From positions 1,116,001-1,180,000 of the forward strand of contig NZ_CP006942.1 of assembly GCF_000521605.1 (NCBI RefSeq): DNA of 64,000 nt, written 5' to 3'. This document shows positions 12,179 through 27,511 of the stretch, piece by piece. The stretch comes from Mannheimia sp. USDA-ARS-USMARC-1261. Lineage in GTDB: Bacteria; Pseudomonadota; Gammaproteobacteria; Enterobacterales; Pasteurellaceae. The translations under genes were made by a program, and so were the position numbers. Below the pieces are notes generated by a model. The model searched no databases. It saw nothing but the letters and a program-made list of their open reading frames with translations, and had not been told where the DNA came from. Every line of letters begins with the position of its first letter. Within the stretch, counting starts at the first letter, position 1.

Positions 12179-12190
12179 ACTAGCTGGACT
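12179..12190. repeat. Left attachment core (attL candidate)
   Basis: ACTAGCTGGACT is identical to 27442-27453, which lies inside tRNA-Val(GAC) (end of the T arm and start of the 3' acceptor strand). The identity stops on both sides, and the left copy does not carry the remaining acceptor bases or CCA. The core may therefore be short, or the left end may have diverged. Its position directly after the dedA terminator and before the first non-host DNA supports the role. Confidence 0.65.
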
Positions 12191-12248
12191 AGAATTTTTA
12201 TCATAACCAGTTGATTTCAAAAGATATTTTTTATTTATTTCTTTACCC

Positions 12249-12270
12249 GTGTTCCTAACTGTGTTCCTAA
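12249..12270. repeat. Two GTGTTCCTAA decamers (integrase arm-type site candidates, left)
   Basis: Identical decamers at 12249-12258 and 12261-12270, two bases apart, in the same orientation and spacing as the pair at 27291-27300 and 27303-27312. With three inverted copies just upstream of the integrase gene, this makes seven in total, confined to the two ends of the island. Confidence 0.7.
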
Positions 12271-12518
12271 AATAAAAAATCAATTCGGTGCGGGATATAT
12301 TTAGGAAAGTATCATAACCCCTCTACCAACATTTCACAAATTTTCCGCAAAAAAACTCTCAAAAAAAACTTTTTTAAAACTATCTCACTTTTCTCTATTC
12401 ACACTTTTTTGTATGTAACCCTTTGATTTTTATTTATTTTTTGTAAGTGCTTAAACACTTGTGAAGTGATAGGTTTCCCACTTTTTGATGCTGTTTGTAT
12501 GATTTTTGCGCATAAGAA

Positions 12519-12540
12519 AGCCTAGCGGGTGGGCCAGGCT
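12519..12540 (-). terminator. Terminator after the primase operon
   Basis: On the minus strand AGCCTGGC pairs with GCTAGGCT (one G-T wobble) over a six-base loop, followed by TTCTTATG. It lies six bases beyond the primase stop. Fourteen bases (AAAGCCTAGCGGGT, 12517-12530) are identical to the terminator beyond the integrase gene (25910-25923). Confidence 0.75.
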
Positions 12541-12546
12541 GTTGGT

Positions 12547-14343
12547 TTAGTCGTTCCATTCGTTTAAAGAATGGACGATATTGATGTAATAAATGTTGGT
12601 TACGTTGATGCCGTCCTTTATTCTCGTTCGTAAGGGCTGTTTGCTCCCTCGTTCTTTTAGTGCGTATTCAAATGCCTGTCTAAATCGGTTGCGTTGTAGT
12701 GGGTTGGGAATGCCCATTCGCTCGCAGTAATATAAGTAGGCAGAATGTAATGCCGTGCGGTGTGCATCCGGTCGTCGGCTACTTCCAAGGGTTAAGCCGT
12801 TGATGATTTCCCGTGCTTCGAAGTGTTTGGCAAATTGGAGAATGTGATCGTTCTCTTCTTTGACTTCGAGAGCTTCTTCACTGTGCTTTTGTGCTTCAAG
12901 CAGTTGCTTCGCCACGATTGGATCGGGAAATGCGTCTAGCAGTAAGCGCACAATTCCACCGGCTTCTTGTTCCAGTTTTTGCGGTAACTCAAAGTCTTTT
13001 TCTTCTTCACGCACCACTTTGTTAAATTGGAAGATAACACGCCGCCGTGAGGTGCCGCCTTTTTGCTCTTTGAAGATGATCGGGCTGTTGCCGGTAATCA
13101 AGAACACGGCTTTCACGGTGTCTTGGAATGCACCACGGTAGAGCGGGCGAAAGCTGATACTATCCCCGCCGGTGATTGATCGTAGAATGCCGCCGTCGCT
13201 GATATAGCTCTCTTGGTCGGGCGAATAGCACAGGGTTTTATCAATCAGGCCGCAGCGCATTGTCGGGTTCTCTAAATCCTTTAAGCTGATCGAAGCCGTG
13301 TTATCATCACCACCCGCCAAAATTCGGGCTAGGTGGTTGAATACGCTTTTACCCGTACCGCCTGCGCCGGTAATTTCAAGAAAAAGCTGCCATTCGTGGC
13401 GGTTGGTCAATATCATATATAACGCCGCCAGAATGCGCTGTTTTTTCTCGTCGTTGCTGTCGCTTACCCAATTCAGCCATTTGTCAAAGTTGGGCGTGGC
13501 GGTTTGGGTAGAGTAGTAATCGATATTGATGAACGACGTTAAAAAATGCCGTTCATCGTGCGGCATAAAGTCGCCCGTCTGTTTATGAAGTACGCCGTTA
13601 GCAAAGGCGAGTAAATGCGGATCGGCTTTGCTCATTGGTTCGCTTTCATATTTCAGCAGTTCAAGCAGATTTTTAATGTTGTTCGCACTGTAACGTGAAA
13701 CGCCTTTTGCCTTGAAGAAGGTCAAAAAGTTTCGCCCCATTTGGCTGTCTTCGACAATCTCCCATTTTTTGCCGGTGTAGTGGTAAATCGCTTTGCTTAG
13801 GTCGTTAATTCGCAGCGGTTTTTCATACCATTTCAAAAATTCGGCCAGTTTCTCATTGTCGCCCATTTCTTTAAATAGCGCAGTGAATTCAGCTCTGCGT
13901 TGCTCGTCGGTTTTACTGCTTTCTACAACCTGTTCCGCCAGAGTGCTATCTTGGCGCAGTCGGGCGATGTAGTCGCTGGCATTTTCCAGCACTTGCCCGA
14001 TATTGTCGTGAAATACCACCGTGCGCGCGTCGGTCAGTTTGGCAAGGTTTAAGCAGATCGCCGTCTTGTGGTGTTCGCTTAGGTTGCCGAATTGGTAAAT
14101 ATCGACCACCTGCCGATTTTGTGGCGCAATCCGCAGCTGTGAGATTTCTGCCAGTTGCTTGTCACCCAGCACGATCGGCGGTTGGTGGCGGTCTGTTTTA
14201 ATGGTTTCGCATAGAAAAATCCATTCTTGCCCATTACCACCGCCAAAGGCTTCCCACGCTTGCGAACCGGCTAAAATCGTCAGGGCGTGAAGTGGTTCGT
14301 CCTTTTGCTGTTTCAGGTGTGGCGCGTTCTTAATGTTTGCCAT
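12547..14343 (-). CDS. D5-type primase/helicase (SF3 ATPase), replication protein of the island
   Basis: Predicted replication initiator and helicase of the satellite. The 598-residue protein has a D5_N-like middle region around PHLLAFANGVLHKQTGDFMP (residues 242-261) and a Walker A motif GAGGTGKSVF at 326-335. Further SF3/D5 elements follow: the DKTLCYSPDQE Walker B-like region, FLITGNSP, and a SRRRVIFQF arginine-finger region. I do not see a clear Toprim or zinc motif in the first 230 residues, so primase activity is an inference from P4-alpha-like relatives. It is the last gene of the minus-strand operon, overlaps its upstream neighbour by 14 bases, and is followed by a terminator. Confidence 0.88.
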   Translation of the reverse strand: MANIKNAPHLKQQKDEPLHALTILAGSQAWEAFGGGNGQEWIFLCETIKTDRHQPPIVLGDKQLAEISQLRIAPQNRQVVDIYQFGNLSEHHKTAICLNLAKLTDARTVVFHDNIGQVLENASDYIARLRQDSTLAEQVVESSKTDEQRRAEFTALFKEMGDNEKLAEFLKWYEKPLRINDLSKAIYHYTGKKWEIVEDSQMGRNFLTFFKAKGVSRYSANNIKNLLELLKYESEPMSKADPHLLAFANGVLHKQTGDFMPHDERHFLTSFINIDYYSTQTATPNFDKWLNWVSDSNDEKKQRILAALYMILTNRHEWQLFLEITGAGGTGKSVFNHLARILAGGDDNTASISLKDLENPTMRCGLIDKTLCYSPDQESYISDGGILRSITGGDSISFRPLYRGAFQDTVKAVFLITGNSPIIFKEQKGGTSRRRVIFQFNKVVREEEKDFELPQKLEQEAGGIVRLLLDAFPDPIVAKQLLEAQKHSEEALEVKEENDHILQFAKHFEAREIINGLTLGSSRRPDAHRTALHSAYLYYCERMGIPNPLQRNRFRQAFEYALKERGSKQPLRTRIKDGINVTNIYYINIVHSLNEWND

Positions 14344-14749
14344 TACTGCCCCCTTGTGCTTGGTTTTCCAGTAGTTCCAGTGAAAACGCCATTTGTTGGC
14401 GCAGCTGTTTAAATTGCTCTACCAAAAAGCACATCACTGTACTGTACAGCAGAAATTCTTGAACCTGTTTTGCTGTCGGCTCGTCTTCGTCTCGTGGTGC
14501 TTTGGGCATTTGTGCCAGTAGTACGCGCTCAAATACTGCCAATTCATCTATACACTTTTTTGCTGAATTTGGGCGAACAAGGGCGATATGGGCTAAATTC
14601 TCACCCAGCTCATCTAATACGGCAGCAGTAAACGGGAAAGGCGGTAATCTTGTGCCTTGTTCAAAGTTGCTAGACGTAATCGCGATAGATTGCTGTTCAG
14701 CTTCGTTAAAGTCGCTCCAATCAAGTAGGGCTTCTTGTTGATTACACAT
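14330..14749 (-). CDS. Unknown 139-residue island protein
   Basis: Not recognised. Starts MCNQQEALLDWSDFNEAEQQ; mostly helical, with a leucine/glutamine-rich C-terminal third. It is sandwiched in the replication operon: its ATG overlaps the stop of the upstream small gene (AAAAATGTGTAA with a GGGGG ribosome site), and its own end overlaps the primase start. That coupling indicates a real translated gene. A role alongside the primase is only inferred from position. Confidence 0.7.
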   Translation of the reverse strand: MCNQQEALLDWSDFNEAEQQSIAITSSNFEQGTRLPPFPFTAAVLDELGENLAHIALVRPNSAKKCIDELAVFERVLLAQMPKAPRDEDEPTAKQVQEFLLYSTVMCFLVEQFKQLRQQMAFSLELLENQAQGGSNGKH

Positions 14750-15021
14750 TTTTACCCCCTTTAACTTTCACCGATTGTGTAAGTTGTGCCTGTAAGTAGG
14801 TTTCGCGGTTGAAATGGTAAAGTTTATCCGCTGATTTCTTCGCGTGGTCTAGCAAGGTTTGCGCCGTCCATAGCAGATTTCCGACAATTTCAGGATTTGC
14901 GGTAAACTCGTTTTCATTGTTGCAGTAGTCCACGCTCATAAAATCAATCAGCGCGCTTACTTGCGTTAAGTGCTGATTAAGTTCGTTCAGTTAATTGTGA
15001 AAGGGTCTCTAAATTACGCAT
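14742..15021 (-). pseudogene. Small replication-operon gene broken by a 4-base duplication
   Basis: From the ATG at 15021 the frame reads MRNLETLSQLTE and then stops after two further codons. Directly downstream, in another frame, ELNQHLTQVSALIDF continues into MSVDYCNNENEFTANPEI and runs to the stop at 14742. The break coincides with a tandem GAACGAAC at 14981-14988; removing one GAAC restores one frame of about 92 residues. The upstream gene's stop overlaps the 15021 ATG (AAAAATGCGTAA) exactly as at the next gene boundary, which supports 15021 as the true start. An internal ATG at 14939 might still give a 65-residue product. Function unknown. Confidence 0.75.
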
Positions 15022-15208
15022 TTTTGCCCCCTTCTGCAAAGTCTTGGATTTGGTTCACGGTCTCGGTTAAAGATTTCGCAATCAGCTCTAAACTGTCTTG
15101 GAACTCTCCGGCTTTGGCTACGCTGGGATTGACCTTGCTTAGTAGGTTGAGCAGTGAAACGGTATTCCATAGTGCGCCGATTTGGTCTTGTAGGATTGGT
15201 TTACGCAT
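15014..15208 (-). CDS. Unknown 64-residue island protein
   Basis: Not recognised; starts MRKPILQDQIGALWNTVSLL and looks alpha-helical. AAGGGAG six bases before the ATG is a strong ribosome site, and the stop overlaps the next start, so it is translated as part of the operon. Its end (GGKNA) resembles the end of the following gene (GGKNV), because both stretches double as the ribosome site of the next gene. Confidence 0.7.
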   Translation of the reverse strand: MRKPILQDQIGALWNTVSLLNLLSKVNPSVAKAGEFQDSLELIAKSLTETVNQIQDFAEGGKNA

Positions 15209-15650
15209 AGAAAGCTCCCTTTTCAGCAGAAAGAACGAAAAGGAATGCGGTTAATTTGGCAATAATGCCTTTTGGGGTTTGGGTTGATTTGTTCATAGCT
15301 TCAAGTGTTCTAGTTAGTGATAGGGATTTATCGCTGAAAGGGTGCGATAAGGGTTCAACTGCTACACTTGAATAGCCCCCCTTATTCGTGCGGATACAAT
15401 CCGCCTTATTTCGGGGTGTCGCCCTTACCGCAAAATCTGAATAGATCACGGGTGTAGTAAGCCCGTGAGTTTGGTGAATTTCAGGTAAAAAAATACCGCT
15501 TGTGTAACGGTTGCGGTTGCCGTCAAGTGTAGTAGTGTTTTCATCATACCCGCAACTGCTCGCTTTTGGCAAGCTGTGATTTTGTACATTCATTGGATTT
15601 TTTGGTTTATTTTGTACAATCTTTTTGGCTTGTAGGATTGAATTACTCAT
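15201..15650 (-). CDS. Unknown 149-residue island protein
   Basis: Not recognised. Low in hydrophobic residues and rich in Ser, Thr and Asn in the first two thirds, ending in a more hydrophobic segment (GIIAKLTAFLFVLSAEKGAFYA). It overlaps the genes on both sides by eight bases. An uptake-signal core lies inside it (15495-15503). The composition is odd for a globular protein, so the reading frame should be treated with some caution. Confidence 0.55.
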   Translation of the reverse strand: MSNSILQAKKIVQNKPKNPMNVQNHSLPKASSCGYDENTTTLDGNRNRYTSGIFLPEIHQTHGLTTPVIYSDFAVRATPRNKADCIRTNKGGYSSVAVEPLSHPFSDKSLSLTRTLEAMNKSTQTPKGIIAKLTAFLFVLSAEKGAFYA

Positions 15651-16152
15651 ACATCACCCCCTTACAAGCGGTCAGTTTTGCCTGTTTTTGCGCAAGAAAC
15701 GCATTGGAATAGCGGGCGATACAGATTGCGCTTTCTGAAAGTTGTAAACGTTGGCGGGCTTCCTGTTCGGAATTGGCGCGGATAGTAATTTTTAGGCGTG
15801 AGCCGGTAAGGAATTTGAATAGCATTGCTAATAGCTCCATTTGTGATTTTTGAAGAGCTATCGCTAAACTTTCCAGGGTTTGGGCGATAGCGTGCAACGG
15901 GCTGGAAAACTGCGACAAATGGAACACAGCAAAGGGCGAACCTTTCCCATTACACGCTACCATAGAGAGAAATCCGGCAAATCCATTTTTGGATTGGCTG
16001 TTTTCTTTGGGTGTGCGTGTGCTACAAACAAAAATAGCACGGTTTGACGGCGTGCTTTTGTTCGCCATTTGTAATTTGTTCGAGTTTCCAGGCTCGGCTG
16101 TGGATTTTGCCACAGCAATTGTAATATAAATCGCTTTGGTTAAAGGTGTCAA
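15643..16152 (-). CDS. Ash/Icd-like small regulatory protein of P4-type elements (tentative)
   Basis: First gene of the primase operon. The open frame starts with TTG at 16152; the first in-frame ATG is at 16068 (MANKSTPSNRAIF). Neither has a strong ribosome site, so the start is uncertain. The central IFVCSTRTPKENSQ...FLSMVACNGKGSPFAVFHLSQ and the later LKITIRANSEQEARQRL resemble, in my memory, the small Ash and Icd-like (host division inhibitor-like) proteins carried by P4-like elements. I could not align them, so the name is weak. An uptake-signal core occurs inside the gene (15664-15672). Confidence 0.45.
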   Translation of the reverse strand: MTPLTKAIYITIAVAKSTAEPGNSNKLQMANKSTPSNRAIFVCSTRTPKENSQSKNGFAGFLSMVACNGKGSPFAVFHLSQFSSPLHAIAQTLESLAIALQKSQMELLAMLFKFLTGSRLKITIRANSEQEARQRLQLSESAICIARYSNAFLAQKQAKLTACKGVMYE

Positions 16153-16199: not shown

Positions 16200-16334
16200 T
16201 TTTGTTCATAATGGTGTTATAATGTTCTCGCATTTTAAGAAGTCCTATTCGGTAAATGTCATTTCATCAAGTGTAGTTTCTAGAAATCCTGTGGAAACGG
16301 GGAAAATGCGGCGAAGGAAATCGCCGCTTTTTTT
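16200..16334 (+). ncRNA. Possible plus-strand small RNA opposite to the operon
   Basis: The gap between the two minus-strand operon halves carries a TATAAT near 16218-16223 on the plus strand and, about 85 bases further, a strong plus-strand terminator (stem GCGGCGA/TCGCCGC at 16308-16327, then seven T). No plus-strand gene is credible here. In phage P4 a small RNA from the operon leader sets immunity, so an antisense or leader RNA controlling the primase operon is conceivable. The -35 element is poor, and this is inference from signals only. Confidence 0.35.
16308..16334 (+). terminator. Strong terminator reading on the plus strand
   Basis: GCGGCGA, a six-base loop, TCGCCGC, then TTTTTTT. 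The T-run is on the plus strand; on the minus strand only ATTTTCC follows. It overlaps the last bases of the minus-strand gene ending at 16333, so it may also slow transcription from that side. Confidence 0.8.
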
Positions 16335-16677
16335 ATACCTGCTTTCCAAGCTGTGTAATAGCGTGTTGAATTTGGCTTTCACTAAACGGCGTGAAATTTG
16401 CGTAACTTTTGCGATTTCTCCCAGCTTGTAGTTTGCTGTTATAAAGCTGTGCTAATTTGTGGATTTGTTCCGCATTAGCTGCTTTATAGCTGGTGTAGGG
16501 TCGCCCAGCCGGTGAGGTGTGGCGCACGTGTATCAGTTCTTCATCGATAAGCTTTTCAATATCGTAAGCGTAGTTGCGGGCGTTCAGGTGGTAGCCGTCT
16601 TCGATAAAGTCTTTTTCAGTAAAACCGTGCTGCGGGTGAGTGATCAGACGTTGAATTGCTTTCATTATCACAGACAT
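16333..16677 (-). CDS. Small winged-helix-like protein of unknown role
   Basis: A 114-residue product starting MSVIMKAIQRLITHPQHGFTEKDFIEDG. The pattern of short helices followed by a basic hairpin (HVRHTSPAGRPYTSYKA) suggests a winged helix, but no family is recognised. The start at 16677 has GGGGG just upstream, which also forms the end of the AlpA-like gene, so the two are coupled. Position behind AlpA suggests a regulatory role. Confidence 0.6.
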   Translation of the reverse strand: MSVIMKAIQRLITHPQHGFTEKDFIEDGYHLNARNYAYDIEKLIDEELIHVRHTSPAGRPYTSYKAANAEQIHKLAQLYNSKLQAGRNRKSYANFTPFSESQIQHAITQLGKQV

Positions 16678-16679
16678 AA

Positions 16680-16907
16680 TTACCCCCTTTTCGCTTCTTG
16701 CGCCGCAATCCATTCGCGGATTTCGGATAAATTCCAGCGAATATGATTTTGTGATAGGCGGATAGGTTTCGGGAAGGTCGGATCGTCTTTCATCAAGCTG
16801 TTTAGCTTGGTGCGTTTAATGCCGATCATCGTCATTGTGTCTTGGGTTGTTCCCCATACTGCTTCCGCAGTAGGGGCTTTATGGGGTGGGATATGAGAAA
16901 GTGTCAT
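16680..16907 (-). CDS. alpA: AlpA-family regulator
   Basis: Small MerR-like winged-helix protein. In P4-like satellites and PICIs of Gram-negative bacteria AlpA proteins switch on excision or late genes. The 75-residue product has the AlpA layout: TTQDTMTMIGIKRTKLNSLM helix-turn-helix, then the wing DPTFPKPIRLSQNHIRWNLSEIREWI. Unusually for such islands it is not next to the integrase gene; the head and packaging genes lie between. About 130 bases without a gene separate it from the accessory gene upstream. Confidence 0.8.
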   Translation of the reverse strand: MTLSHIPPHKAPTAEAVWGTTQDTMTMIGIKRTKLNSLMKDDPTFPKPIRLSQNHIRWNLSEIREWIAAQEAKRG

Positions 16908-17038: not shown

Positions 17039-17662
17039 CTAAGCCTTATGTGTTTTTTTATCAACGATTTTGCCATTTCTGCGGCATTTATCCGCCGGTA
17101 ATGGATCAATTTGATTAAGAACTTTTTTAATCGCCCCGTCTTTTTCTGTGATCGTGTATTTTTTTCGGATAAGGGCGATCATTTCATCATAGGTGGTTTC
17201 TAATCTTTTCTCCCATTCTTCTTCCGCCACTTCTTTTACTCTTGCCACATAATCACGAGTCGTATTTTTTAATCGAATATTCAATTTTCCGTTAATTATT
17301 TGATTTAGTTCCAGTTGTTTATAAATACTGGTGGCGTGGATATTTATTCCTGTTAATAATAAATTAAAACCAGGGGAAAAGGGTGTGAGTAATGCGTCTA
17401 TGCCTTGTTTTAGGCCAGCTTTTATTTCTTCACTTAACTCATCAGAGGAAGAAATAATAGAGAGTAGTTCATTTTTACTGTTTTCTTGTTCTTTTAGTAA
17501 TTGAGCTATATTATCTAATGCCATTCTAATATCCGTAATGTCATTTCTTCCTTTATTATTATCAATGTTTTGTATTACACTTTCTATAAAGTCATCATCA
17601 TTCATATTGTCCAATGCGTGTAATGTAGCGTGAAACCCCTTGTCAATTAAGTAATAAATCAT
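17039..17662 (-). CDS. Unknown 207-residue accessory protein
   Basis: Not recognised. Rich in Asp, Asn, Ile and Lys (e.g. ALDNMNDDDFIESVIQNIDN), predicted helical, with a basic C-terminus (ADKCRRNGKIVDKKTHKA). A glycine/leucine stretch near the middle (PGFNLLLTGINI) might be a weak membrane or core segment. It is visibly more AT-rich than the capsid genes. Its ATG overlaps the end of a 30-codon frame. Its place between the packaging module and AlpA is where accessory cargo is expected. Confidence 0.6.
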   Translation of the reverse strand: MIYYLIDKGFHATLHALDNMNDDDFIESVIQNIDNNKGRNDITDIRMALDNIAQLLKEQENSKNELLSIISSSDELSEEIKAGLKQGIDALLTPFSPGFNLLLTGINIHATSIYKQLELNQIINGKLNIRLKNTTRDYVARVKEVAEEEWEKRLETTYDEMIALIRKKYTITEKDGAIKKVLNQIDPLPADKCRRNGKIVDKKTHKA

Positions 17663-17735
17663 CTGATGTTAATTCTTCTTTTTCGACTAATGCGAGATAT
17701 TCTTCTACTGATGGTTCTTTTTTTAATTTAGACAT
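17643..17735 (-). CDS. Putative 30-residue protein ahead of the accessory gene
   Basis: Frame MSKLKKEPSVEEYLALVEKE and ten more residues, acidic, with AGGA about ten bases upstream of the ATG. It overlaps the start of the 207-residue gene by 20 bases, in another frame. It could be a translational leader that couples to that gene, or an antitoxin-like peptide. No family match is known to me. Confidence 0.4.
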   Translation of the reverse strand: MSKLKKEPSVEEYLALVEKEELTSDDLLLN

Positions 17736-18091: not shown

Positions 18092-18565
18092 TTACCGCCA
18101 TTTCGCCATTGATTGCTGCATTGTCGCAATATAGACGTTTTTCGCTTCGTTGATTGCCCGTGCTTCGCCGGCATTTTTGGCTTTTTCCATAAAGTGCGCA
18201 CCTTTCATTTTCTTAGTACCTCGGTCAAGCATAAACCAGTAAAACGGGTCTGTTTTGTCTTTGGTGTTGGCTGATACTGCTGCCATTTTCTTTCCACCTG
18301 CGCGGCGTATTCTGATCACGCCTTTTCCGCTTAATTGCCCGTCTTTGCTTTTGATTTTTATCCGGTGGCGCAAGTTGTTTTTCACTGTGCCTTTTTGGCG
18401 GTATTCCGTACTTTTCCCTAAAACCGGAATAAGCGGCTTAGCGATATTCTTATATAATTTCACGCCTGCTTTTAAACCTTCGCGCATTGCTTTTTTCTGC
18501 GCGCTGGCTAGGTCGTTTTGAAATTGGGTTAATTTTTTTGAAATTAAATCGGCAAAACCAGCCAT
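18092..18565 (-). CDS. HK97 gp10-like neck/tail-completion protein
   Basis: Protein that in HK97-type phages sits between head and tail. The 157-residue product has the N-terminal helix LISKKLTQFQNDLASAQKKAMREGLKAG and the basic RHRIKIKSKDG region. A fold motif YWFMLDRGTKKMKGAHFMEKAKNAGEA follows, which is the FxExGT...PFLRPA signature of the family in a diverged form. The start is three bases after the upstream gene with GGGG upstream. It is separated from the other connector genes by the terminase genes, which is unusual. Confidence 0.7.
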   Translation of the reverse strand: MAGFADLISKKLTQFQNDLASAQKKAMREGLKAGVKLYKNIAKPLIPVLGKSTEYRQKGTVKNNLRHRIKIKSKDGQLSGKGVIRIRRAGGKKMAAVSANTKDKTDPFYWFMLDRGTKKMKGAHFMEKAKNAGEARAINEAKNVYIATMQQSMAKWR

Positions 18566-18568
18566 ATA

Positions 18569-18832
18569 TTACCCCTTGATTTTATTTAATCGTTCTAGTT
18601 TTTTGTTTAGACGTTGAATAAGTAAATCATTCCCTAGTGTAAATTCTTGCTTCTGTTTGTTTACGGCAATCATTATTCGCTTTTTTAAGCAGATTTTTAA
18701 TTCATTCAGCGGATAGGGTTCTTTATCATTCCACAAGCTCATAAAAGTATAAGGTGGTGTGCCACGATGTAAGTAATAATCTATGGCGAGATCCATTAAA
18801 ACAAAATTATTTTTAGCAATTTTTGCTTTCAT
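18569..18832 (-). CDS. Unknown 87-residue island protein
   Basis: Not recognised. Starts MKAKIAKNNFVLMDLAIDYY and ends in a basic, leucine-rich helix (IQRLNKKLERLNKIKG). AAGGAC lies nine bases before the ATG. It sits between TerL and the gp10-like gene, is AT-richer than TerL, and is probably cotranscribed with them. Confidence 0.6.
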   Translation of the reverse strand: MKAKIAKNNFVLMDLAIDYYLHRGTPPYTFMSLWNDKEPYPLNELKICLKKRIMIAVNKQKQEFTLGNDLLIQRLNKKLERLNKIKG

Positions 18833-20900: not shown

Positions 20901-21144
20901 TCTGTTTTCTGTCTATATTTTCTAAAAAATTGTCGTGCGTAAAAATTTGATTGGGGGGCGGTTCTTAGCGGTTGAGCTTTTCTTTCCAAAACTCCCCCCA
21001 CTGGCTGAAATTGTTTAATTTTTGCGCGAAGCTCAAATTTGAGCTTTGTTTATTTATTAAACGAAGTCCAAAGTTGGATTTCGTTCATTTATTCAGCCAA
21101 TCCAAATTTCGATTGGCTAAGGTATCAGGGTTTTCTTTATCCCT
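20901..21144. other. Structured non-coding stretch between HNH and TerS (cos region candidate)
   Basis: Gene-free 244 bases. Three hairpins follow each other: the palindrome AAGCTCAAATTTGAGCTT at 21029-21046; ACGAAGTCC/GGATTTCGT at 21061-21084; AGCCAATC/GATTGGCT at 21095-21118. Nearer TerS, two GC-rich blocks can pair: GGGGGG near 20953 and CCCCCC near 20994. In HK97-like cos phages the HNH gene, cos site and terS lie in this order, so the cleavage site could be here. The exact cut position cannot be read from sequence. Confidence 0.5.
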
Positions 21145-21501
21145 TCACTTCTTCGCACCATATCCGCGTTTGTCTATCTCTCGTGTCTTGTAGCTGTGGC
21201 AATCACGGCAAAGGGCTTGATGATTAGACTGCACCCAGAATAGAGGGTCGGCTTGCCCATTCTCTACGGGCTTGATATGGTCTATCACGGTTGCCGGTGT
21301 GTAATCGCCTTTGGCTAAACACATCACACACAGGGGATGTTGAGCTAAGTAGCCTTTGCGGTACTTTGTCCACTGGTGATCGTAGCCACGCTTTGCCGCA
21401 CTTTCGCGGGTGTCCTTCGGTTTGTGTTCATCACATCGCCCAGACTTGACGCGGTTACGGCAACCGGGGAAGGTGCAACGGCGCAAGGGTTGAAACGGCA
21501 T
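21145..21501 (-). CDS. HNH endonuclease of the packaging module
   Basis: In HK97-like phages an HNH nuclease assists terminase at cos. The 118-residue product begins MPFQPLRRCTFPGCRNRVKS and has two zinc-binding Cys pairs (CTFPGC and the CVMCL/CRDC pair), with the HNH core VIDHIKPVENGQADPLFWVQSNHQALCRDCH. I start it at 21501, where GGAG stands nine bases upstream; the upstream extension overlaps the previous gene's end. It lies next to the terminase genes, as usual for this family. Confidence 0.9.
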   Translation of the reverse strand: MPFQPLRRCTFPGCRNRVKSGRCDEHKPKDTRESAAKRGYDHQWTKYRKGYLAQHPLCVMCLAKGDYTPATVIDHIKPVENGQADPLFWVQSNHQALCRDCHSYKTREIDKRGYGAKK

Positions 21502-21512
21502 TCTGTCAGCTC

Positions 21513-21818
21513 CTAATAGATTGCCGGTTCGCGGTATGGCTTCCATAACGCACTAATCGCAAATGGCACTTCATACAGTTGAACGTCGGCCACGGCTTCA
21601 CGGTTTGCGTATAAATGCCCGATCAACATCAGGCAACCGACCTTAATCCCCTTTGTGAAGATTACGGTTTTATCGGTGGTCGTATCGCCCCACGTTTTGC
21701 CGATATAGTTCTGCGCCACTTCTTCCGCACTCTCCGCCAAGAGTTCAAGCAGTTCATCGTCTAAGCTATGCTCTACGCGCAAGTGTGCTTTAATTTCGTC
21801 TAAGTCAATATTAGCCAT
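21513..21818 (-). CDS. Head-tail connector protein (HK97 gp6 type)
   Basis: Ring protein that extends the portal. The 101-residue product MANIDLDEIKAHLRVEHSLD, then DELLELLAESAEEVAQNYIG, is the standard start of the gp6-like connector family, with ALWKPYREP-type ending. AGGAGA stands eight bases before the ATG at 21818; the 39 extra in-frame residues upstream overlap the previous gene and are unlike the family. It overlaps the adaptor gene by eight bases. Confidence 0.85.
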   Translation of the reverse strand: MANIDLDEIKAHLRVEHSLDDELLELLAESAEEVAQNYIGKTWGDTTTDKTVIFTKGIKVGCLMLIGHLYANREAVADVQLYEVPFAISALWKPYREPAIY

Positions 21819-22182
21819 TGTGCGCTTCTCCTTCTTTACACATAAGCTGTAATTCTTCGTGGCGTTCGTGAAAGTCGATAACATCAAAAATCGAAAATAT
21901 CCGCTCGCCGTACTTAATCCGCATTTTTCGAACAATCACTAAATCAGGGCGATAGCGCACCCGAATACGGGTGATGTTCTCGCCGATTTGAAAAGCACCA
22001 CTAAAATACTCACGCCCTGAAATCGGTTCGATACTGGCTCTTAATGTGATGACATCTTGCCAATTCTGCTTCATCGTAGATCCGCTGCGAATAATCTTGC
22101 CTTGGTTATCCGGTTTCGCTGGCGCAATTCGTTGAAGCGTGATCACCTTATCGAATTTTCCGGCTCTAACCATTCGCGCCAT
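21811..22182 (-). CDS. Head closure / head-tail adaptor protein
   Basis: 123-residue member of the phage head-tail joining family (SPP1 gp16 / HK97 gp7 like). The features are MVRAGKFDKVITLQR at the start, WQDVITLRASIEPISGREYF, ITRIRVRYRPDL, and the closing IFSIFDVIDFHERHEELQLMC. It begins 17 bases inside the end of the portal reading frame. Translation coupling to the frameshifted portal would still work, because the downstream portal frame stays open up to it. Confidence 0.85.
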   Translation of the reverse strand: MARMVRAGKFDKVITLQRIAPAKPDNQGKIIRSGSTMKQNWQDVITLRASIEPISGREYFSGAFQIGENITRIRVRYRPDLVIVRKMRIKYGERIFSIFDVIDFHERHEELQLMCKEGEAHNG

Positions 22183-23376
22183 TTTCGCCCCCTTGCTTGA
22201 CTTCTACGGTCTGTTTCCACGCTTGCGAATACTCATCACCGCCAACATAAGGCAATAGCCCTTCACGCTTACGCGCTTCATTCGGGGAAAGAATGCCCGC
22301 CTTAATAGCGGTTTCGTAGCTTTGATATCGCTCTTGCTGATTGGTGCGCAGTAAGTCGCTGGTGTCGAACTCAATCACGTACCGCTTCCTGCTTTGGCTA
22401 TTGAGATCAATCATCAAGGCATCTTTTAATTGCTGTTCAAAATTGACTAAATGCGGGCGCAAGGTTTGCCCCAAGAACGCACGGCTGGCTTCGCTGAAAT
22501 TGGCGTAGCTGGAATGCGAATAATCTTGTAGGAAAATGGGCGAAATGTTGAAAATGCGCGCCACATCTTCAATCGTGAATTTTCGGCTGGCCAACCATTC
22601 CGCATCTTGGTTACTCATTCCCAACTGTTTGTATTCCATACCGCCTTCTAAAATCGGCGTTTTACCGGCATTCTTCGCCCCTTGATAGCGTTTCAAGGCT
22701 TCGATTGCCTTTTGACCTTTGGCTTGATCGAACCATTCCGCCTGGTCACAATACCGCCCGCCATTAAGCCGTTTTTCATAATGCTTGCGCCGTGCTTCTG
22801 TTGGGCAAGGCCTAATCCCACTGCTTCACGGCAGACGGTAATCGGCGAACGCCCCATAAAGCCGTCGTGGCTGGCGTGGCGTAGGTGTAGCACTTCATCT
22901 TGAAGATAGGTGCTTACTTTGCCGTTGAAGTCTGTGATTTGATACAGATATGCGCCCGTGGTGGTGCGTTGGACGTTTACCGCGTGCGGCGGGTAGGGGG
23001 GCAGGCTTTCCGGTTGCCCTTTATCATTCCAGCCGATCACGGCGTATGCGTTGCCGGTTAAAAGAACGTGGCGCATCATCACTTCTTTAAACTGGTAGGG
23101 CGTTTGGTTGCGGTTCGGCATTTCATTCAGCAGATATTCCACCGAATGATTTTCTACCCGTTCGCGCCCGTCGGCGTTCACTTCGAACAGATAGCAAGGC
23201 ATACTTGCCACCGCTTGCGCAATCACATTGACTGCATTCAATACCGCGGGCAGGGCTTCGGCGGTTTGTGGGCTAACATATTCGCCCGCGCCGGTATTGG
23301 CTGCGCCGATAATCCCCAGCACATCATCCACCGTAAAAGAACGGGTTTCAGGCTTCTTCTTAAAAAATCCAAACAT
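22166..23376 (-). pseudogene. Portal protein, split by a one-base frameshift
   Basis: HK97-type portal through which DNA enters the head. The first frame runs from 23376 (MFGFFKKKPETRSF, GGAGGG seven bases upstream) through the conserved YQFKEVMMRHVLLTGNAYAV and ITVCREAVGLGLAQQKHGAS blocks, then leaves the family after GGIVT at about 22745. It stops at 22693. In the next frame AEWFDQAKGQKAIEALKRYQ picks up directly and runs through MEYKQLGMSNQDAEWLASRK to the stop at 22166. Exactly one base is missing at about 22738-22745 (CCAGGCGG on the minus strand). Together the parts make about 404 residues, normal for this family. Either a real disabling mutation or a sequencing error is possible. Confidence 0.88.
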
Positions 23377-23378
23377 CG

Positions 23379-23948
23379 TTAGCCCTCCGCCACAGCCAAC
23401 CATTTACGGCGGTTTTCGTCTTGCCAGTTTGCGGATTTTTCGCTTTTTGCGACCGCTTGCGAACGTTTCAAAATGGCTAGACTGCTGTCCGGATATGCCG
23501 GAATGCTGGTTACGGTAATTTCGAATAGTTCTGCTTCGGTCACGGTGCGCAAATTCGGCTCTACGGAAAAATCCCACTCGTTCTTTTTGGCAATGAAACC
23601 AAAGGACATTCCGCGAATGTCGCCACGTTCCACGCTTACCAGCAGATCGCGCCCTAGTTGGTTATCCGGTGGGGTGAGTTCAAAACGTAAACCAATCGCG
23701 TCTTCTTGTAGTGAAAGTGTACCGCTTGATGTGCGTCCAAGCAGTTTTGTATGGTCGTGTTCAAACAGCGCGCGCACATCTTGCCCACCCGTCAAAGAAT
23801 GGCTAAACGCATTCGGGGCGAAACGTTCGATATATTCGCCCCACAGCAATTCACTGTCTTTATTCCACTGCACCACATAGCCGGTGAGCTTCTTGTTTTC
23901 GCTGTCTGCGGTCAGCGTACTGATGCGGATCTCTAATTCTGTTGTCAT
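23379..23948 (-). CDS. Prohead (head maturation) protease
   Basis: Serine protease of the HK97 prohead family that removes the scaffolding part of the capsid protein. The 189-residue product has the typical start TELEIRISTLTADSENKKLTGYVVQWN, the catalytic histidine in ALFEHDHTKLLGRT, and the catalytic serine in GDIRGMSFGF, followed by the TEAELFEITVTSIPAY block. The stop lies two bases before the portal ATG, and GTGGCGGAGGG at its end is the portal ribosome site. Confidence 0.92.
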   Translation of the reverse strand: MTTELEIRISTLTADSENKKLTGYVVQWNKDSELLWGEYIERFAPNAFSHSLTGGQDVRALFEHDHTKLLGRTSSGTLSLQEDAIGLRFELTPPDNQLGRDLLVSVERGDIRGMSFGFIAKKNEWDFSVEPNLRTVTEAELFEITVTSIPAYPDSSLAILKRSQAVAKSEKSANWQDENRRKWLAVAEG

Positions 23949-24000: not shown

Positions 24001-25188
24001 TTAGGCTTTACCTTCAAGCACCTTGATAGCGTTGCTATCGACCACGCCACCGCCTAAATACTTATCCGTGTGGACTTTATAGAAGCCCGGTTCGGTAATG
24101 TTGTCAGGGCGAGTGCGCACGCCGGTTTCGTGATCCACGATTGTATAACCACGTTTGAAATCACCTACCGCTAAGAATGGCTGTTCGACCGCCACATCCG
24201 GCATTGTTTCAAGGTAATAGACCGGCAAGCCTAACAGTGTGGACGGTGCGCCCGCTTGTAAGCCGTCGCGCCAAATGTAATCGCCGTTGCCGTTCTTCAA
24301 TTTCTGAATAGTACCGGCGGTTTGTGAGTTCATAACCCACACTGCATTTTTGCGATAACCGGCTTTGAGTGAGTAGAGTAGATCGATTAGCACATCCGCA
24401 TTCAGTTTGTCGGTTTTCACTTCCATTTTTTGAAGTGTGCCGAATGCGCGGGTTTTGTCGTTGTCGGTAGTGCGTGGGTAGTGTAAAAAGCCTTTAGCCA
24501 TTTTCTCGCCCGTACCGTTCACAAGATCGCTTTCTTCGGTTTCGGCGAAAGTATCTGTAATTTCATCTGTCAGCCAGCCGAGAATATCTACGCCGCCAAA
24601 ATCTAAAATCTCTTGCGTGGTTTTTGGATACGCAAAGACATTGTGAACAGCGATCGTGACTTCGTTCATTTTCGGCGTGTTTGTACCGGTGCGCGCTTCG
24701 CCTTCTGTACCACGGCCAACGGTTGCACCACCCGCAGAAACGAGTTTTTTATACTCTTTCGCTCCCACCGGCAAACGTACGGTATGCGCAAGTGAGCGCA
24801 TTACGCTTTCATCGGCAAGGCGTTTCATCACTTCGCCGTCTAACTGTGGGATAACTGAATAGCCCCCATCTGCACCGCCATTCGTATTTGTCGCTAGTGT
24901 GCGCAGTTCGCCCGTTTTAATCCAGTGGCGTAATTCATCATTACTTGGGGCTTTTGTGGCTTTCTCGGCTTTCTGATAAGCCGGATTACTGCGCTCTTCT
25001 TCGGTGACGCTTTCCAAGCGTTCGATCTCGGTTTTGAGTTCGTCCACTTTTGCTTTTAAGGCATCAAATTTACCGCCTTCTTCTTCATTCAAAGAGCGAT
25101 TTTCTTTGTCGGCATTCGCCAGCATTTCGCGCATTTGCTCAACCGCTTGCGCTTTTTGTTGGCGTAGTTCTTGGAGTTTTTTAAACAT
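24001..25188 (-). CDS. Major capsid protein, HK97 fold
   Basis: The 395-residue protein begins with a coiled-coil delta (scaffold) domain, MFKKLQELRQQKAQAVEQMR up to about residue 100, rich in Glu, Lys and Gln. The capsid domain follows: NTNGGADGGYSVIPQ, LVNGTGEKMAKGFLHY, AVWVMNSQTAGTIQKLKNGNG, LLGLPVYYLETMPDV and AVGDFKRGYTIVDHETG, all standard family blocks. The start at 25188 has AAGGAAA seven bases upstream; an ATG two codons earlier is too close to that site. It is unusual that it precedes protease and portal instead of following them. Confidence 0.95.
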   Translation of the reverse strand: MFKKLQELRQQKAQAVEQMREMLANADKENRSLNEEEGGKFDALKAKVDELKTEIERLESVTEEERSNPAYQKAEKATKAPSNDELRHWIKTGELRTLATNTNGGADGGYSVIPQLDGEVMKRLADESVMRSLAHTVRLPVGAKEYKKLVSAGGATVGRGTEGEARTGTNTPKMNEVTIAVHNVFAYPKTTQEILDFGGVDILGWLTDEITDTFAETEESDLVNGTGEKMAKGFLHYPRTTDNDKTRAFGTLQKMEVKTDKLNADVLIDLLYSLKAGYRKNAVWVMNSQTAGTIQKLKNGNGDYIWRDGLQAGAPSTLLGLPVYYLETMPDVAVEQPFLAVGDFKRGYTIVDHETGVRTRPDNITEPGFYKVHTDKYLGGGVVDSNAIKVLEGKA

Positions 25189-25615
25189 TAGCATTTTCCT
25201 TATGATTAAGTGTTTGGAATTGATAGCGAACGCGATACGTTAATGCCGAACTCACCCACGCATTATTTTCTGTGTCGTATTCGTAATCGTAAGATTGATT
25301 GAAATCGGCGGTTAGCGAGAAGTTGTCGAAGTCGTGGAATAAGATTGCTTGATTGATTTTCTCATTCAGCTCATCTAAAACGGCTTCGCCTTGGTGGAAA
25401 GGTAAGTAAGTCAAAATGACTAGATCAGCTTCCCACTCGATATTTCCAATCGTAACGGGCTGCCCTTCTGCGCCATTGAGATAAACCGCAATCATCGGCA
25501 ATTCATCATCGAGATTGAGAATTTTCGGTAATCCATTGTGGAAATAGGTAACTTCTTCAATTTCACCGCTTAAAAAGTTGATAACTTCTTGTCTAATTTT
25601 GTTATGGATTAGCAT
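25181..25615 (-). CDS. gpU-like tail terminator / neck protein
   Basis: The 144-residue product (from 25615; five further residues are possible upstream) resembles lambda gpU. It has ELPMIAVYLNGAEGQP in the middle, WEADLVILTYLPFHQGEAVLDEL, and the closing YDYEYDTENNAWVSSALTYRVRYQ. gpU caps the tail tube and docks it to the head. In an island without tails it would be the part that fits the home-made head to a helper's tail. It overlaps the capsid start by eight bases and is the first gene of the head operon. Confidence 0.7.
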   Translation of the reverse strand: MLIHNKIRQEVINFLSGEIEEVTYFHNGLPKILNLDDELPMIAVYLNGAEGQPVTIGNIEWEADLVILTYLPFHQGEAVLDELNEKINQAILFHDFDNFSLTADFNQSYDYEYDTENNAWVSSALTYRVRYQFQTLNHKENANV

Positions 25616-25778
25616 CAAAACCCCGCTCAAAAATCCGTTAAATCCTTATTCTAAGGATTTAAAAATTGAACTTGAATAGGCTGTTTTCTGTGCGAAAAAA
25701 TACGATAAAAAATGAAAGCTAAATTTACATTTCTTTTCAGATAGGATGTTTTCTTGTTTGGTAGTAGGTTTGAGATAA

Positions 25779-25872: not shown

Positions 25873-25910
25873 TATAAGAAATAATATATAAAAAGAGATA
25901 AGTAAAAATA

Positions 25911-25934: not shown

Positions 25935-25941
25935 GGAAGGT

Positions 25942-27180
25942 TTAGGGGAGTTTTGCCAGTATCGAGAAAGTGGAGCATTGTTCTACATAATCGCCCCACG
26001 CCTGCATTACAGGCTTACGCTGCTCTAAATAGGTTGAACGGTTATAAACTTGGCTTACTTCGCTGCCGACTGCGTGAGCTAAACAGGCTTCAGCCACCTC
26101 ATAGCCTACGCCATTTTCAGCAAGCCACGTTCGCGCCACTGCGCGCAATCCGTGCGCAGTCTGTCTGCCGGCATATCCCATCGAATTTATCGCTTTGTTT
26201 GCTGTTTCTTTATTCATCGGCTGGTTTGGCTTGCTGTAATGCGGAAACACAAAACGAGAATTACCGGAAATCGCTTTCATCTTCTCTAAAATAGCAATGG
26301 CTTGAGTAGAAAGCGGTACAGTATGCGAATTTGCGCCTTTCTTCGTCTTCTTCATCTTGTCGGCTGGTATCGTCCATAGCTTTTCTAACCAGTCAATTTC
26401 GCACCATTCGACGCTTACCGCTTCTGCGGGGCGAACCATTGTCAAAAGCTCCCATTGGATCAAAATCTTTGTAACTAAATCGCGGTTAGAGTTATGAAGA
26501 GTGTTCAGAAATTCCGGTAACTCTTCGGGGCGAATAGCCGGATTGTTCTGCTTAGGCTTCTTACTGAATGCTTCGCCGACCTTCTCACAGTAGTTAAACT
26601 GTAATAAGCCGGTATTCACGGCATAATTTAGAATTTGATTGGTCAAACGGATCAGGCGGTGCAGTGTGTCGCTTTCCCCGGCTGCATTTAACGGTTTGAG
26701 CGTTTCCACAAGTAAATATGGCGTGATTGCATTAATAGGATGATGACCTAGCTTTTGAAAGAGGTATTTTTCCAGCCGTTGCCAATTCTTTTCCATTGTG
26801 AGCGGTTCGACATCATTTTGCCGTTTAACCCGCCAATTCTCGGCAACTTTATAAAAAGTGCTTGAACGAGTTTGTAGGTCTGCGATTTTTTGTTCTTTTT
26901 GATGTATCTGCGGATCGATATTTTGAGCCAATAAAGCCCGATATTCATCGCGCTTTGCTCTTGCCTGCGCAAGAGAAATTTCAGGATAAGCACCAATCCC
27001 TAAATTTGTGCGTTTGGGTGGCTCTGTCAAAGGTCGATAGTAATTGAAAAGCCAAGATTTTGAGCCATTAGACTTTACACGCAAAAAAAGCCCTTGCCCA
27101 TCCATTAGACTGTAATCTTTCTCTTTGGGCTTAGCTTTATCTACTTCGGTATTTGTAAGGGGTTTTGTTACTCTTGCCAT
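25942..27180 (-). CDS. int: P4-type tyrosine integrase
   Basis: Site-specific recombinase that inserts the element into tRNA-Val and, with a helper factor, excises it. The 412-residue protein has the arm-binding N-terminal domain (KPLTNTEVDKAKPKEKDYSLMDGQGLFLRV, then LGIGAYPEISLAQARAKRDE), a SAM-like core-binding domain and the catalytic domain. I see the first Arg in LLTMVRPAEAVSVEW, the HGLRAVARTW His-Arg box and the tyrosine in YNRSTYLEQR. It lies next to the tRNA, with five arm-type decamers between its ATG and the tRNA; the nearest is three bases before the start codon, so integrase may repress its own gene. Confidence 0.95.
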   Translation of the reverse strand: MARVTKPLTNTEVDKAKPKEKDYSLMDGQGLFLRVKSNGSKSWLFNYYRPLTEPPKRTNLGIGAYPEISLAQARAKRDEYRALLAQNIDPQIHQKEQKIADLQTRSSTFYKVAENWRVKRQNDVEPLTMEKNWQRLEKYLFQKLGHHPINAITPYLLVETLKPLNAAGESDTLHRLIRLTNQILNYAVNTGLLQFNYCEKVGEAFSKKPKQNNPAIRPEELPEFLNTLHNSNRDLVTKILIQWELLTMVRPAEAVSVEWCEIDWLEKLWTIPADKMKKTKKGANSHTVPLSTQAIAILEKMKAISGNSRFVFPHYSKPNQPMNKETANKAINSMGYAGRQTAHGLRAVARTWLAENGVGYEVAEACLAHAVGSEVSQVYNRSTYLEQRKPVMQAWGDYVEQCSTFSILAKLP

Positions 27181-27183
27181 AAT

Positions 27184-27312
27184 TTAGGAACACGGGAATT
27201 TTAGGAACACGAAAAATAAAAACTTTGTAAGCCTTGCTATTCAAGGCTTGTGAGATTTTTAGGAACACAGAATTTTACGTATTATAACCTGTGTTCCTAA
27301 CTGTGTTCCTAA
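27184..27312. repeat. Five GTGTTCCTAA decamers (integrase arm-type site candidates, right)
   Basis: Three copies in the orientation TTAGGAACAC at 27184-27193, 27201-27210 and 27259-27268, and two as GTGTTCCTAA at 27291-27300 and 27303-27312. The last two and their context (27291-27315) are identical to 12249-12273 at the other end. They occupy the place where lambda/P4-type integrases bind with their N-terminal domain. Confidence 0.7.
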
Positions 27313-27376
27313 AATCTGCGGTTAAACGCGAAAAAATACAGTAGGAAATGATCAGTAAAAAGGGCTTAAAAACACG

Positions 27377-27401
27377 AAATCCCTTGATAATCAAGGGATT
27401 T
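27377..27401. terminator. Perfect hairpin between island end and tRNA-Val
   Basis: AAATCCCTTGA, loop TAA, TCAAGGGATTT: an 11-base perfect stem 34 bases beyond the tRNA 3' end. On the minus strand it lies where tRNA-Val transcription should end, but the T-run is short (ATTTCG). It is on the island side of the attachment core, so it would have been brought in by the element. Confidence 0.5.
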
Positions 27402-27434
27402 GCGAAAGGTTGCGTTAAGTTACGCTAGGAATAA

Positions 27435-27511
27435 TGGTGCGACTAGCTGGACTCGAACCAGTGACCCCCACCATGTCAAGGTGGTGCTCTAACCAACTGA
27501 GCTATAGTCGC
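27435..27511 (-). tRNA. tRNA-Val (anticodon GAC)
   Basis: 77 bases including an encoded CCA. The acceptor stem is GCGACTA/TAGTCGC with discriminator A; the D arm is GCTCAGTTGGTTAGAGC; the anticodon arm CCACC-TTGACAT-GGTGG gives anticodon GAC; the T arm contains GGTTCGAGTCC. The body closely resembles E. coli tRNA-Val(GAC). It is intact despite the insertion, because the element supplies the 3' end. Confidence 0.97.
27442..27453. repeat. Right attachment core (attR candidate) inside tRNA-Val
   Basis: ACTAGCTGGACT, identical to 12179-12190. It covers the 3' half of the T stem and the first part of the 3' acceptor strand of tRNA-Val(GAC), the usual crossover place for P4-type integrases. Confidence 0.65.

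What the first reader, a model, noticed from the sequence alone, without database searches (positions are those of the whole stretch)
12179..27453. A capsid-forming satellite (cf-PICI-like) in tRNA-Val of a Pasteurellaceae
Seen: one integrated 15.3-kb block encoding integrase, AlpA, a D5-type primase/helicase and a full head and packaging set (capsid, protease, portal, connectors, HNH, TerS, TerL), all on one strand. No tape measure, tail tube, baseplate, fibre, holin/endolysin or CI/Cro genes are present. Known: cf-PICIs make their own capsids and package their own DNA but take tails from a helper phage. Inference: this is such an element, and the gpU-like and gp10-like proteins are the adaptors to the borrowed tail.
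Basis: partly seen in the sequence, partly recalled or inferred. Interest (0 to 1): 0.88.

Follow-up and report, generated by a model that had tools for sequence, protein, structure and literature searches.

The report
Capsid-forming phage satellite, portal frameshifted
A 15-kb stretch of this bacterial chromosome is a parasite of viruses that makes its own virus head but must borrow most of a tail from a real virus; it belongs to a known family, but its lineage also carries the proteins that finish and cap a tail, and in this copy one head gene is broken.

Summary
The block is real and its ends are right: a 15.3-kb island in a tRNA-Val gene with integrase, AlpA, D5 primase/helicase and an HK97-type head and packaging module. 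It belongs to the capsid-forming PICI (cf-PICI) lineage: capsid and large terminase are 59% and 67% identical to those of an E. coli O157:H7 element, against 34-39% for the best listed full-length phages. Gene order capsid-protease-portal-HNH-TerS-TerL holds in 75 of 77 loci with all core hits (the other two are records cut open) and is the reverse of the resident prophage's; a decayed prophage is very unlikely. Two points were missed. The portal gene is split by a frameshift that most relatives lack, so this copy may be unable to package. [quoted passage not shown] Some relatives also carry a tape measure or a gpI-like protein; no tail tube or J tip was found in a satellite operon. Best reading: a cf-PICI variant that caps and finishes borrowed tails itself. 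Two resident prophages could be helpers; none is shown.

The parts
12179..12190 (.). attR-like 12-base core, far end of the element
   Evidence: identical to 27442-27453; empty sites in three same-genus genomes
12250..12270 (.). two 9-base repeats TGTTCCTAA, probable integrase arm sites
12547..14343 (-). D5-type primase/helicase, 598 aa
   Evidence: phrog_864 1.2e-89; Pfam D5_N 2.3e-15
14330..14749 (-). small protein of the replication region, 139 aa, unknown
   Evidence: ORF; hits in 7 of 24 chosen relatives
14742..14939 (-). small ORF, 65 aa, unknown
15014..15208 (-). small ORF, 64 aa, unknown
15201..15650 (-). 149-aa ORF, unknown
   Evidence: hits in 7 of 24 chosen relatives
15643..16152 (-). 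Ash-family protein, 169 aa
   Evidence: Pfam Phage_ASH 1.3e-7
16333..16713 (-). 126-aa ORF, unknown, next to AlpA
   Evidence: 14 of 31 Pasteurellaceae loci
16680..16907 (-). AlpA-type regulator/excisionase, 75 aa
   Evidence: PHROG; Pfam PF05930 1.2e-10
17039..17662 (-). 207-aa protein of the variable slot before alpA
   Evidence: one distant homologue, L206, besides the identical L181
17643..17810 (-). 55-aa ORF, unknown
18092..18565 (-). Neck1 / tail-completion protein, 157 aa
   Evidence: phrog_5 2.8e-8; AlphaFold2 model pLDDT 89; best structural match SaPI1 neck entry, Z 6.4
18569..18832 (-). 87-aa ORF, unknown
   Evidence: 7 of 31 Pasteurellaceae loci
18865..20544 (-). terminase large subunit, 559 aa
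   Evidence: phrog_9 1.5e-172; 67% to the O157:H7 element
20541..20900 (-). terminase small subunit, 119 aa
   Evidence: phrog_83 2.2e-37
20901..21144 (-). non-coding HNH-TerS junction with conserved motif (13-mer at 20935-20947), candidate cos site
   Evidence: 13-mer in 47 of 90 satellite loci, 0 of 20 phage/prophage stretches
21145..21546 (-). HNH endonuclease, 133 aa
   Evidence: phrog_144 1.5e-36
21513..21935 (-). head-tail adaptor Ad1
   Evidence: phrog_40 1.4e-32
21811..22182 (-). head closure protein Hc1
   Evidence: phrog_25 3.5e-22
22166..22696 (-). portal, C-terminal piece (other reading frame)
   Evidence: phrog_12 6.1e-49
22693..23403 (-). portal, N-terminal piece; gene split by a frameshift
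   Evidence: phrog_12 1.2e-55
23379..23948 (-). head maturation protease, 189 aa
   Evidence: phrog_80 1e-55
24001..25194 (-). HK97-fold major capsid protein, 397 aa
   Evidence: Pfam Phage_capsid 1.8e-63; PDB 9gyi_B 6.5e-142
25181..25630 (-). lambda gpU-type tail terminator, 149 aa
   Evidence: Pfam Phage_tail_U 2.1e-22; phrog_37 1.2e-27; lambda gpU structures 4.6e-10
25942..27180 (-). tyrosine integrase, 412 aa
   Evidence: Pfam
27184..27312 (.). five 9-base repeats TTAGGAACA/TGTTCCTAA, probable integrase arm sites
27435..27511 (-). tRNA-Val(gac), target; att core at 27442-27453

Best explanation
An integrated cf-PICI. Shown: it sits in tRNA-Val, has its own integrase and AlpA, a D5 primase/helicase, and an HK97-type head and packaging set of a satellite lineage separate from phages. 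Inferred: when a helper phage grows, AlpA switches the island on; it is cut out, copies itself, builds small heads and fills them with its own DNA by HNH/TerS/TerL acting at the HNH-TerS junction; Hc1 and Ad1 close the head. The helper gives tail tube, tape measure, tip and lysis. The island's Neck1 and gpU-type terminator then cap the borrowed tube and dock it on the island's head, so that the tail is taken before, not after, it is finished. In this copy the portal is frameshifted, so unless that is a sequencing error or is bypassed, the island should be able to excise and replicate but not to package.
For: Capsid 59% and TerL 67% identical to the O157:H7 element, whose capsid protein equals PDB 9gyi_B letter for letter. 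In the phage collection 5 of 2935 records with a TerL match reach 60-80%; the next listed full-length match is 34%; for the capsid 4 of 416, then at most 39% in the list. Order capsid-protease-portal-HNH-TerS-TerL on one strand in 75 of 77 loci with all seven test hits, of 90 examined; the other two are linear records cut between HNH and TerS. The resident prophage has TerL-portal-protease-capsid. Candidate cos motif shared with Enterobacterales satellites, absent from 20 phage/prophage stretches. att core and empty sites. gpU and/or Neck1 in 35 of 46 distinct Pasteurellaceae-type elements, the window among them. In 20 of 20 gpU-bearing phage loci the Neck1 gene lies just upstream of gpU; in the window they lie at opposite ends of the late operon.
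Against: The portal is in two frames, and 0 of 37 matched ORFs of this window's flanks show such a break against a same-genus genome, so it is probably real and this copy probably inactive. Packaging, induction and tail capture are untested. 11 of 46 Pasteurellaceae-type elements have neither gpU nor Neck1, so the pair is not essential to the life style. A gpU outside the satellite is no commoner in genomes with a gpU-bearing satellite: 3 of 22, against 18 of the other 118 (my count; fragments in G087 left aside).
Confidence: 0.86

Rival explanations
1. A decayed prophage that has lost its tail and lysis genes.
For: All head genes are phage-like; one is frameshifted; such head modules occur in HK97-type phages.
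Against: The same compact block with the same gene order recurs in 75 of 77 loci of two bacterial orders, and the window copy has its own integrase, AlpA and primase; sequence gap to phages; the order capsid-protease-portal is the reverse of the resident prophage's; no locus was seen to continue into a tail module in its own operon.
Confidence: 0.04
2. A cf-PICI in which gpU and Neck1 are weapons: they cap or jam helper tails to hinder the helper, rather than serve in the satellite's own particle.
For: A satellite protein can block helper tail assembly (Rta of PLE11; PMC12987554, passages); the two genes are dispensable for the family.
Against: They lie inside the satellite's late structural operon, next to capsid and TerL, and are kept as satellite lineages over many genera, as expected of particle parts.
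Confidence: 0.15
3. An active cf-PICI whose portal break is only a sequencing or assembly error.
For: Most relatives have an intact portal: 74 of 87 loci, the window counted, give one stretch of at least 360 residues; no other named gene of the island was seen to be split.
Against: 0 of 37 matched flank ORFs in the window are broken; the IMG/VR copy L181 is 100% identical over 12,439 bases, break included, though it may be the same assembly; seven other loci also show portal pieces in different frames.
Confidence: 0.25

Closest known systems
cf-PICI of E. coli O157:H7 (L150, between roxA and phoQ; I take it, from memory, to be EcCIEDL933)
   Same: integrase, AlpA (Pfam 5.4e-17), DUF927 protein in the primase place, capsid, protease, portal, closure, connector, HNH, TerS, TerL in the same head-module order; capsid 59%, TerL 67% identical
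   Different: there the order is int-alpA-primase-head module; here int-head module-alpA-primase. It has no gpU and no Neck1; only a 93-aa ORF follows TerL before phoQ.
P. multocida elements Pmp8 and Pmp7 (deposited as phages) and PmCI172
   Same: Pmp8: 15.3 kb, same gene order including gpU first and Neck1 after TerL, TerL 79%. PmCI172: a PICI with a capsid-protein homologue, 38-39 nm heads on a contractile tail of a Mu-family helper's kind (PMC6092414, section read)
   Different: Pmp8 has an intact 403-aa portal and an integrase stretch facing the other way; whether PmCI172 is of this sequence lineage was not testable here.
PLE of Vibrio cholerae (chimeric tails)
   Same: a satellite supplies some tail parts (tape measure, hub, and a predicted chaperone) and the helper the rest (PMC12987554, passages)
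   Different: unrelated lineage that uses the helper's capsid proteins; here the supplied parts are terminator and neck, and the capsid is the satellite's own.
MulchRoom/MiniFlayer satellites of Streptomyces phages
   Same: own capsid and packaging genes; in MulchRoom a tail like the helper's (PMC10690885, passages)
   Different: no similarity to cf-PICIs reported there; no primase; virulent helpers.

Membership tests
cf-PICI | own major capsid protein, maturation protease, portal and head-tail connectors (PMC10690885 wording) | tested here: inconclusive
   all genes present, but the portal is frameshifted in this copy; one stretch of 360 residues or more in 74 of 87 loci of the lineage
cf-PICI | own packaging set: TerS, TerL, HNH | tested here: met
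   candidate cos motif
cf-PICI | no tail tube, tape measure, tip or lysis genes; depends on helper tails | tested here: met
   0 of 36 tail/lysis query proteins hit the block; gpU and Neck1 are present, so dependence is on most, not all, of the tail
cf-PICI | integrase, AlpA-type regulator and primase of its own | tested here: met
cf-PICI | size about 14 kb on average (PMC10803314) | tested here: met
   15.3 kb between att cores
cf-PICI | head genes group with known cf-PICIs apart from phages | tested here: met
   59-67% to the O157:H7 element, itself named a cf-PICI by me from memory and gene set; gap to phages; no tree of capsids was built
cf-PICI | induced by a helper phage; DNA packed in small satellite-made capsids on helper tails | not testable with these tools
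   needs experiment
PICI (general) | own attachment site not used by prophages (PMC6092414) | tested here: inconclusive
   satellites also lie beside a tRNA-Val(gac) in L123, L124, L125 and L127, a second att copy being seen only in L127; use of the site by prophages was not searched
complete or decayed prophage | phage late-gene order with tail and lysis genes, or their remnants, in the same block | tested here: not met

The most novel reading that the evidence does not exclude
A lineage of cf-PICIs steals unfinished rather than finished tails. Each such element brings a part that decides when the tail stops growing or how its tip is built: terminator gpU and/or Neck1 in most Pasteurellaceae elements, a plug-in tape measure in some, a lambda gpI-type tip-assembly protein in others, without tube, chaperone or J tip as far as searched. 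These parts reprogramme helper tails so that they fit satellite heads only. Tape measures in cf-PICIs were already noted (PMC12987554, legend of Extended Data Fig. 10); the terminator/neck pair and gpI I did not find in print, within the searches (no search was made for gpI or for neck proteins, and the founding cf-PICI paper could not be read).
Probability: 0.4. Interest if true: 0.75.

Novelty: new variant of a known kind. Interest (0 to 1): 0.5.

Why it matters
cf-PICIs are said to need only tails from a helper, and how a satellite head fits a phage tail is a point that can be tested. Here a whole lineage carries the two proteins at the head-tail joint, split to the ends of its late operon and evolving apart from the phages' own copies. 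Deleting two small genes in an intact relative would test directly whether the satellite takes finished tails or finishes them itself. The frameshifted portal also gives a natural case of an island that may still excise and replicate but not spread.

Tried and rejected
Rejected: decayed prophage (see rivals). Direct DNA relatives in the phage collection: none at megablast level for the whole block. Programmed frameshift in the portal: not pursued; most relatives read it in one frame. An alternative tail terminator in the gpU-less Pasteurellaceae elements: I looked at the ORFs of 108-144 aa in the slot after TerL or Neck1; they look like membrane proteins by eye, and two of them gave no Pfam match over its cut-off; no terminator search of all of them was made. 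Defence genes in the variable slot: PADLOC gave only weak hits, best 0.0032. Link between gpU-bearing satellites and gpU-bearing prophages in the same genome: none (3 of 22 against 18 of 118, my count). Capsid model by AlphaFold2: mean pLDDT 43, not used. Neck1 profile against PDB sequences: no match; its structural match to the SaPI1 neck entry is modest (Z 6.4, rmsd 4.7 over 105 residues).

Limits of the counts: Pasteurellaceae-type was set as TerL at least 76% identical to the window, a line I drew after seeing the gap; one Pasteurellaceae locus with a broken TerL (L128) fell on the wrong side and I leave it out of the 66. Distinct means distinct capsid protein; loci without TerL or with under 900 bases beyond it were dropped. 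The earlier tally (gpU 22 and Neck1 18 of 31 Pasteurellaceae loci, 0 of 59 others) counts five loci of one genome apart. Figures 'of 24' come from 24 loci that I chose from those 31.
Full report
What is there. The window lies in a 2.39-Mb single-contig genome. Between 12179 and 27453 is an island bounded by a 12-base core, one copy of which lies in tRNA-Val(gac). Five same-genus stretches around dedA were fetched; in three the tRNA follows at once on the dedA terminator, so the island is an insertion; in the other two no tRNA was found in the stretch. The core is short and the tRNA remnant expected at the far end is partly lost; a sister element beside the same kind of tRNA (L127) keeps a longer match, 16 bases. 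Seven copies of TTAGGAACA or its complement, two at one end and five at the other, look like integrase arm sites. From the tRNA inwards, all on the minus strand: integrase; gpU; capsid; protease; portal; Hc1; Ad1; HNH; TerS; TerL; an 87-aa ORF; Neck1; a 55-aa and a 207-aa ORF; AlpA; a 126-aa ORF; Ash; four small ORFs; D5 primase.

Is it a satellite or a decayed prophage? The capsid protein is at least 60% identical to a copy in 34 of 140 genomes searched in the family, the window's own among them, by my count of the printed rows (43 of 140 at any level), and to a list of Enterobacterales loci. In the phage collection the capsid reaches 60-80% in 4 of 416 records and TerL in 5 of 2935; those listed are the 10.7-16.5-kb records Pmp7, Pmp8 and vB_KppS-Ant, the 106-kb record P12620-1 and a 3.8-kb fragment; the next listed full-length matches are 34-39%. 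Of 90 loci examined, 77 had all seven core hits, and 75 of these keep capsid-protease-portal-HNH-TerS-TerL in that order on one strand; the other two, L112 and L149, are linear records opened between HNH and TerS. The resident prophage of this genome has TerL, portal, protease and capsid in that order. So the module has an order of its own, kept across two bacterial orders.

Does the block ever continue into a tail? 27 tail and lysis proteins from the resident prophage, Pmp14, phi80 and a Mannheimia phage, and then nine more, J of two phages and tail or lysis proteins of the Mu-like prophage, were searched against 170 loci and the window block. gpU and Neck1 were not among the queries. The block has no hit. 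Tube and tail chaperone hit only L051 and L220, apparently the same element in two collections, as partial pieces on the other strand, 3 kb before gpU. A tail-tip set with J hits only L036, before the satellite's integrase. A holin-like hit in L110 and an endolysin-like hit in L089 lie on the other strand. The Mu-like queries hit nothing. Tape-measure and gpI hits are another matter (below). Limits: this is BLAST, and many loci end at contig or fetch limits.

Portal. The portal is read in two frames. With the Pmp8 portal as query, 74 of 87 loci, the window counted, give one piece of at least 360 residues; of the other 13, some are cut by contig ends, and eight, the window among them, show pieces in different frames. 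Against the matching region of a same-genus genome (G090), 37 of 41 ORFs had a match in the window and none needed more than one piece, so the break is not part of a general error rate. IMG/VR locus L181 is 100% identical over 12,439 bases, break included, but may be the same assembly.

Tail-completion genes. gpU matches Pfam Phage_tail_U (2.1e-22), phrog_37 tail terminator (1.2e-27) and lambda gpU structures (4.6e-10). Neck1 matches phrog_5 (2.8e-8); its AlphaFold2 model (pLDDT 89) has as best structural match a chain of the SaPI1 neck entry whose title names a tail completion protein (Z 6.4, modest). In trees of 39 rows each, satellite gpU falls on one side of phage gpU (one change, 82% of bootstrap trees). 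Satellite Neck1 is parted from the lambda-Z-like proteins of gpU phages by a 100/100 branch, with the resident prophage's Neck1, on a long branch, on the satellite side. So both look like old satellite lineages, not fresh loans from local prophages. In 20 of 20 gpU-bearing phage loci Neck1 lies just upstream of gpU; in the satellites that have both, gpU opens the late operon and Neck1 follows TerL. Among 46 distinct Pasteurellaceae-type elements 28 have gpU, 33 Neck1, 35 at least one, 10 no tail gene of the kinds tested, one a tape measure alone; among 66 of the other type none has gpU or Neck1 (L128 left out as misplaced). Within the head and neck module the tail-facing proteins differ most: median identity to the window, over the loci with a hit, is 36% for gpU, 49% for Neck1, 54-57% for Ad1 and Hc1, 62-66% for TerS and protease, 68% for capsid and 80% for HNH and TerL (24 loci chosen from 31). 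Regulatory and replication genes differ as much or more (Ash 39%, primase 39%), so fast change alone proves nothing about tails.

Other tail genes in relatives. A tape measure lies inside some satellites: L206 and L211 (912 aa, between HNH and TerS), L052/L251 (903 aa, same place), and after TerL in L112, L244, L253, L222, L227, L240 and L252 (PHROG on four of them, and on L112). L206 is 95.5% and 91.4% identical to Pmp8 on either side of an extra stretch of about 2.85 kb that holds the tape measure, so it comes and goes as a unit. In L222 and L240 an opposite-strand Fis-family ORF (Pfam HTH_8 1e-14; the host gene fis by my reading) follows the tape measure directly, and the integrase is at the other end, so the tape measure belongs to the satellite. 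A lambda gpI-type protein (phrog_32) lies in or within 3 kb after the head module in 17 of 66 other-type elements, and between capsid and protease in L041 and L123; the L123 copy is 84% identical to gpI of the prophage resident in the window's genome. Tape measures in cf-PICIs are already mentioned in print (PMC12987554, passages and legend seen).

Packaging site. The HNH-TerS junction carries a G-run, a C-run and AATTTTTACGCAC; the 13-mer is in the window at 20935 (minus strand), in 47 of 90 satellite loci and in none of 20 phage/prophage stretches, 339 kb in all against 1.6 Mb of satellite loci. In L111 the hit printed lies elsewhere in the element. I take the junction as the likely cos region; this is inference.

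Possible helpers. The genome holds an HK97-headed prophage with lambda-type tail tip at about 837-875 kb (tape measure 1141 aa, tube, J, holin, integrase) and a prophage with sheath and tape measure from about 2.076 Mb on, Mu-like by my reading of its layout and read only in part. The first is favoured a little: its gpI has a near copy in one satellite (L123), and a relative of its tail module lies next to a satellite in L036. Against that, a Mu-family phage is the reported helper of PmCI172 (PMC6092414), and the first prophage's own terminator is of another family (phrog_78). No helper is shown.

Literature. Passages seen: PMC11389934, PMC10803314, PMC10690885, PMC13230959, PMC12987554, PMC12846349, PMC12409344, PMC11364771, PMC13345588; passages and one section: PMC6092414. 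PMC13230959 uses 900 published cf-PICI capsids and PMC10803314 lists Pasteurella among cf-PICI hosts, so the kind is known in this family of bacteria. The founding paper (10.1016/j.chom.2022.12.001) is not held.

Verdict. A cf-PICI of the Pasteurellaceae lineage, probably disabled in this copy, whose lineage mostly carries its own tail terminator and/or neck protein. The class is known; the tail-completion pair makes it a variant worth testing.

Noticed in passing
L206 4482-7327 against L111 (Pmp8): A stretch of about 2.85 kb with a tape-measure gene sits as a plug-in between HNH and TerS in one satellite and is missing from a close relative.
   Followed up: partly
L056 16371-16970, L041 11235-12029, L123 13353-13964 and others: A lambda gpI-type tail assembly protein inside cf-PICIs, after TerL or between capsid and protease.
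   Followed up: partly
window 17039-17810: Variable slot between neck1 and alpA: proteins of about 200-350 aa differ widely between elements, but several ends look by eye like a helix-turn-helix; some elements hold an exonuclease-like gene there.
   Followed up: no
L032-L036 (Pasteurellaceae bacterium Macca): One genome carries many copies and pieces of the satellite (14 matches in G087), and L033 reads as two in tandem.
   Followed up: no
L149 (PQ569648.1, 86271-106503): The 106-kb record of Klebsiella phage P12620-1 ends in a cf-PICI-like block; a joined record or a real co-packaged satellite.
   Followed up: no
OR544138, OR544139, LR881103: Pmp7, Pmp8 and vB_KppS-Ant are deposited as phages but have the gene set of this satellite family, Pmp7 in part.
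   Followed up: partly
G000:C1 about 837-875 kb and from 2.076 Mb: Two resident prophages, one HK97/lambda-like and one Mu-like by layout.
   Followed up: partly
L150 12206-13363: The O157:H7 satellite capsid protein is identical to PDB entry 9gyi chain B; I could not read the entry's title.
   Followed up: partly
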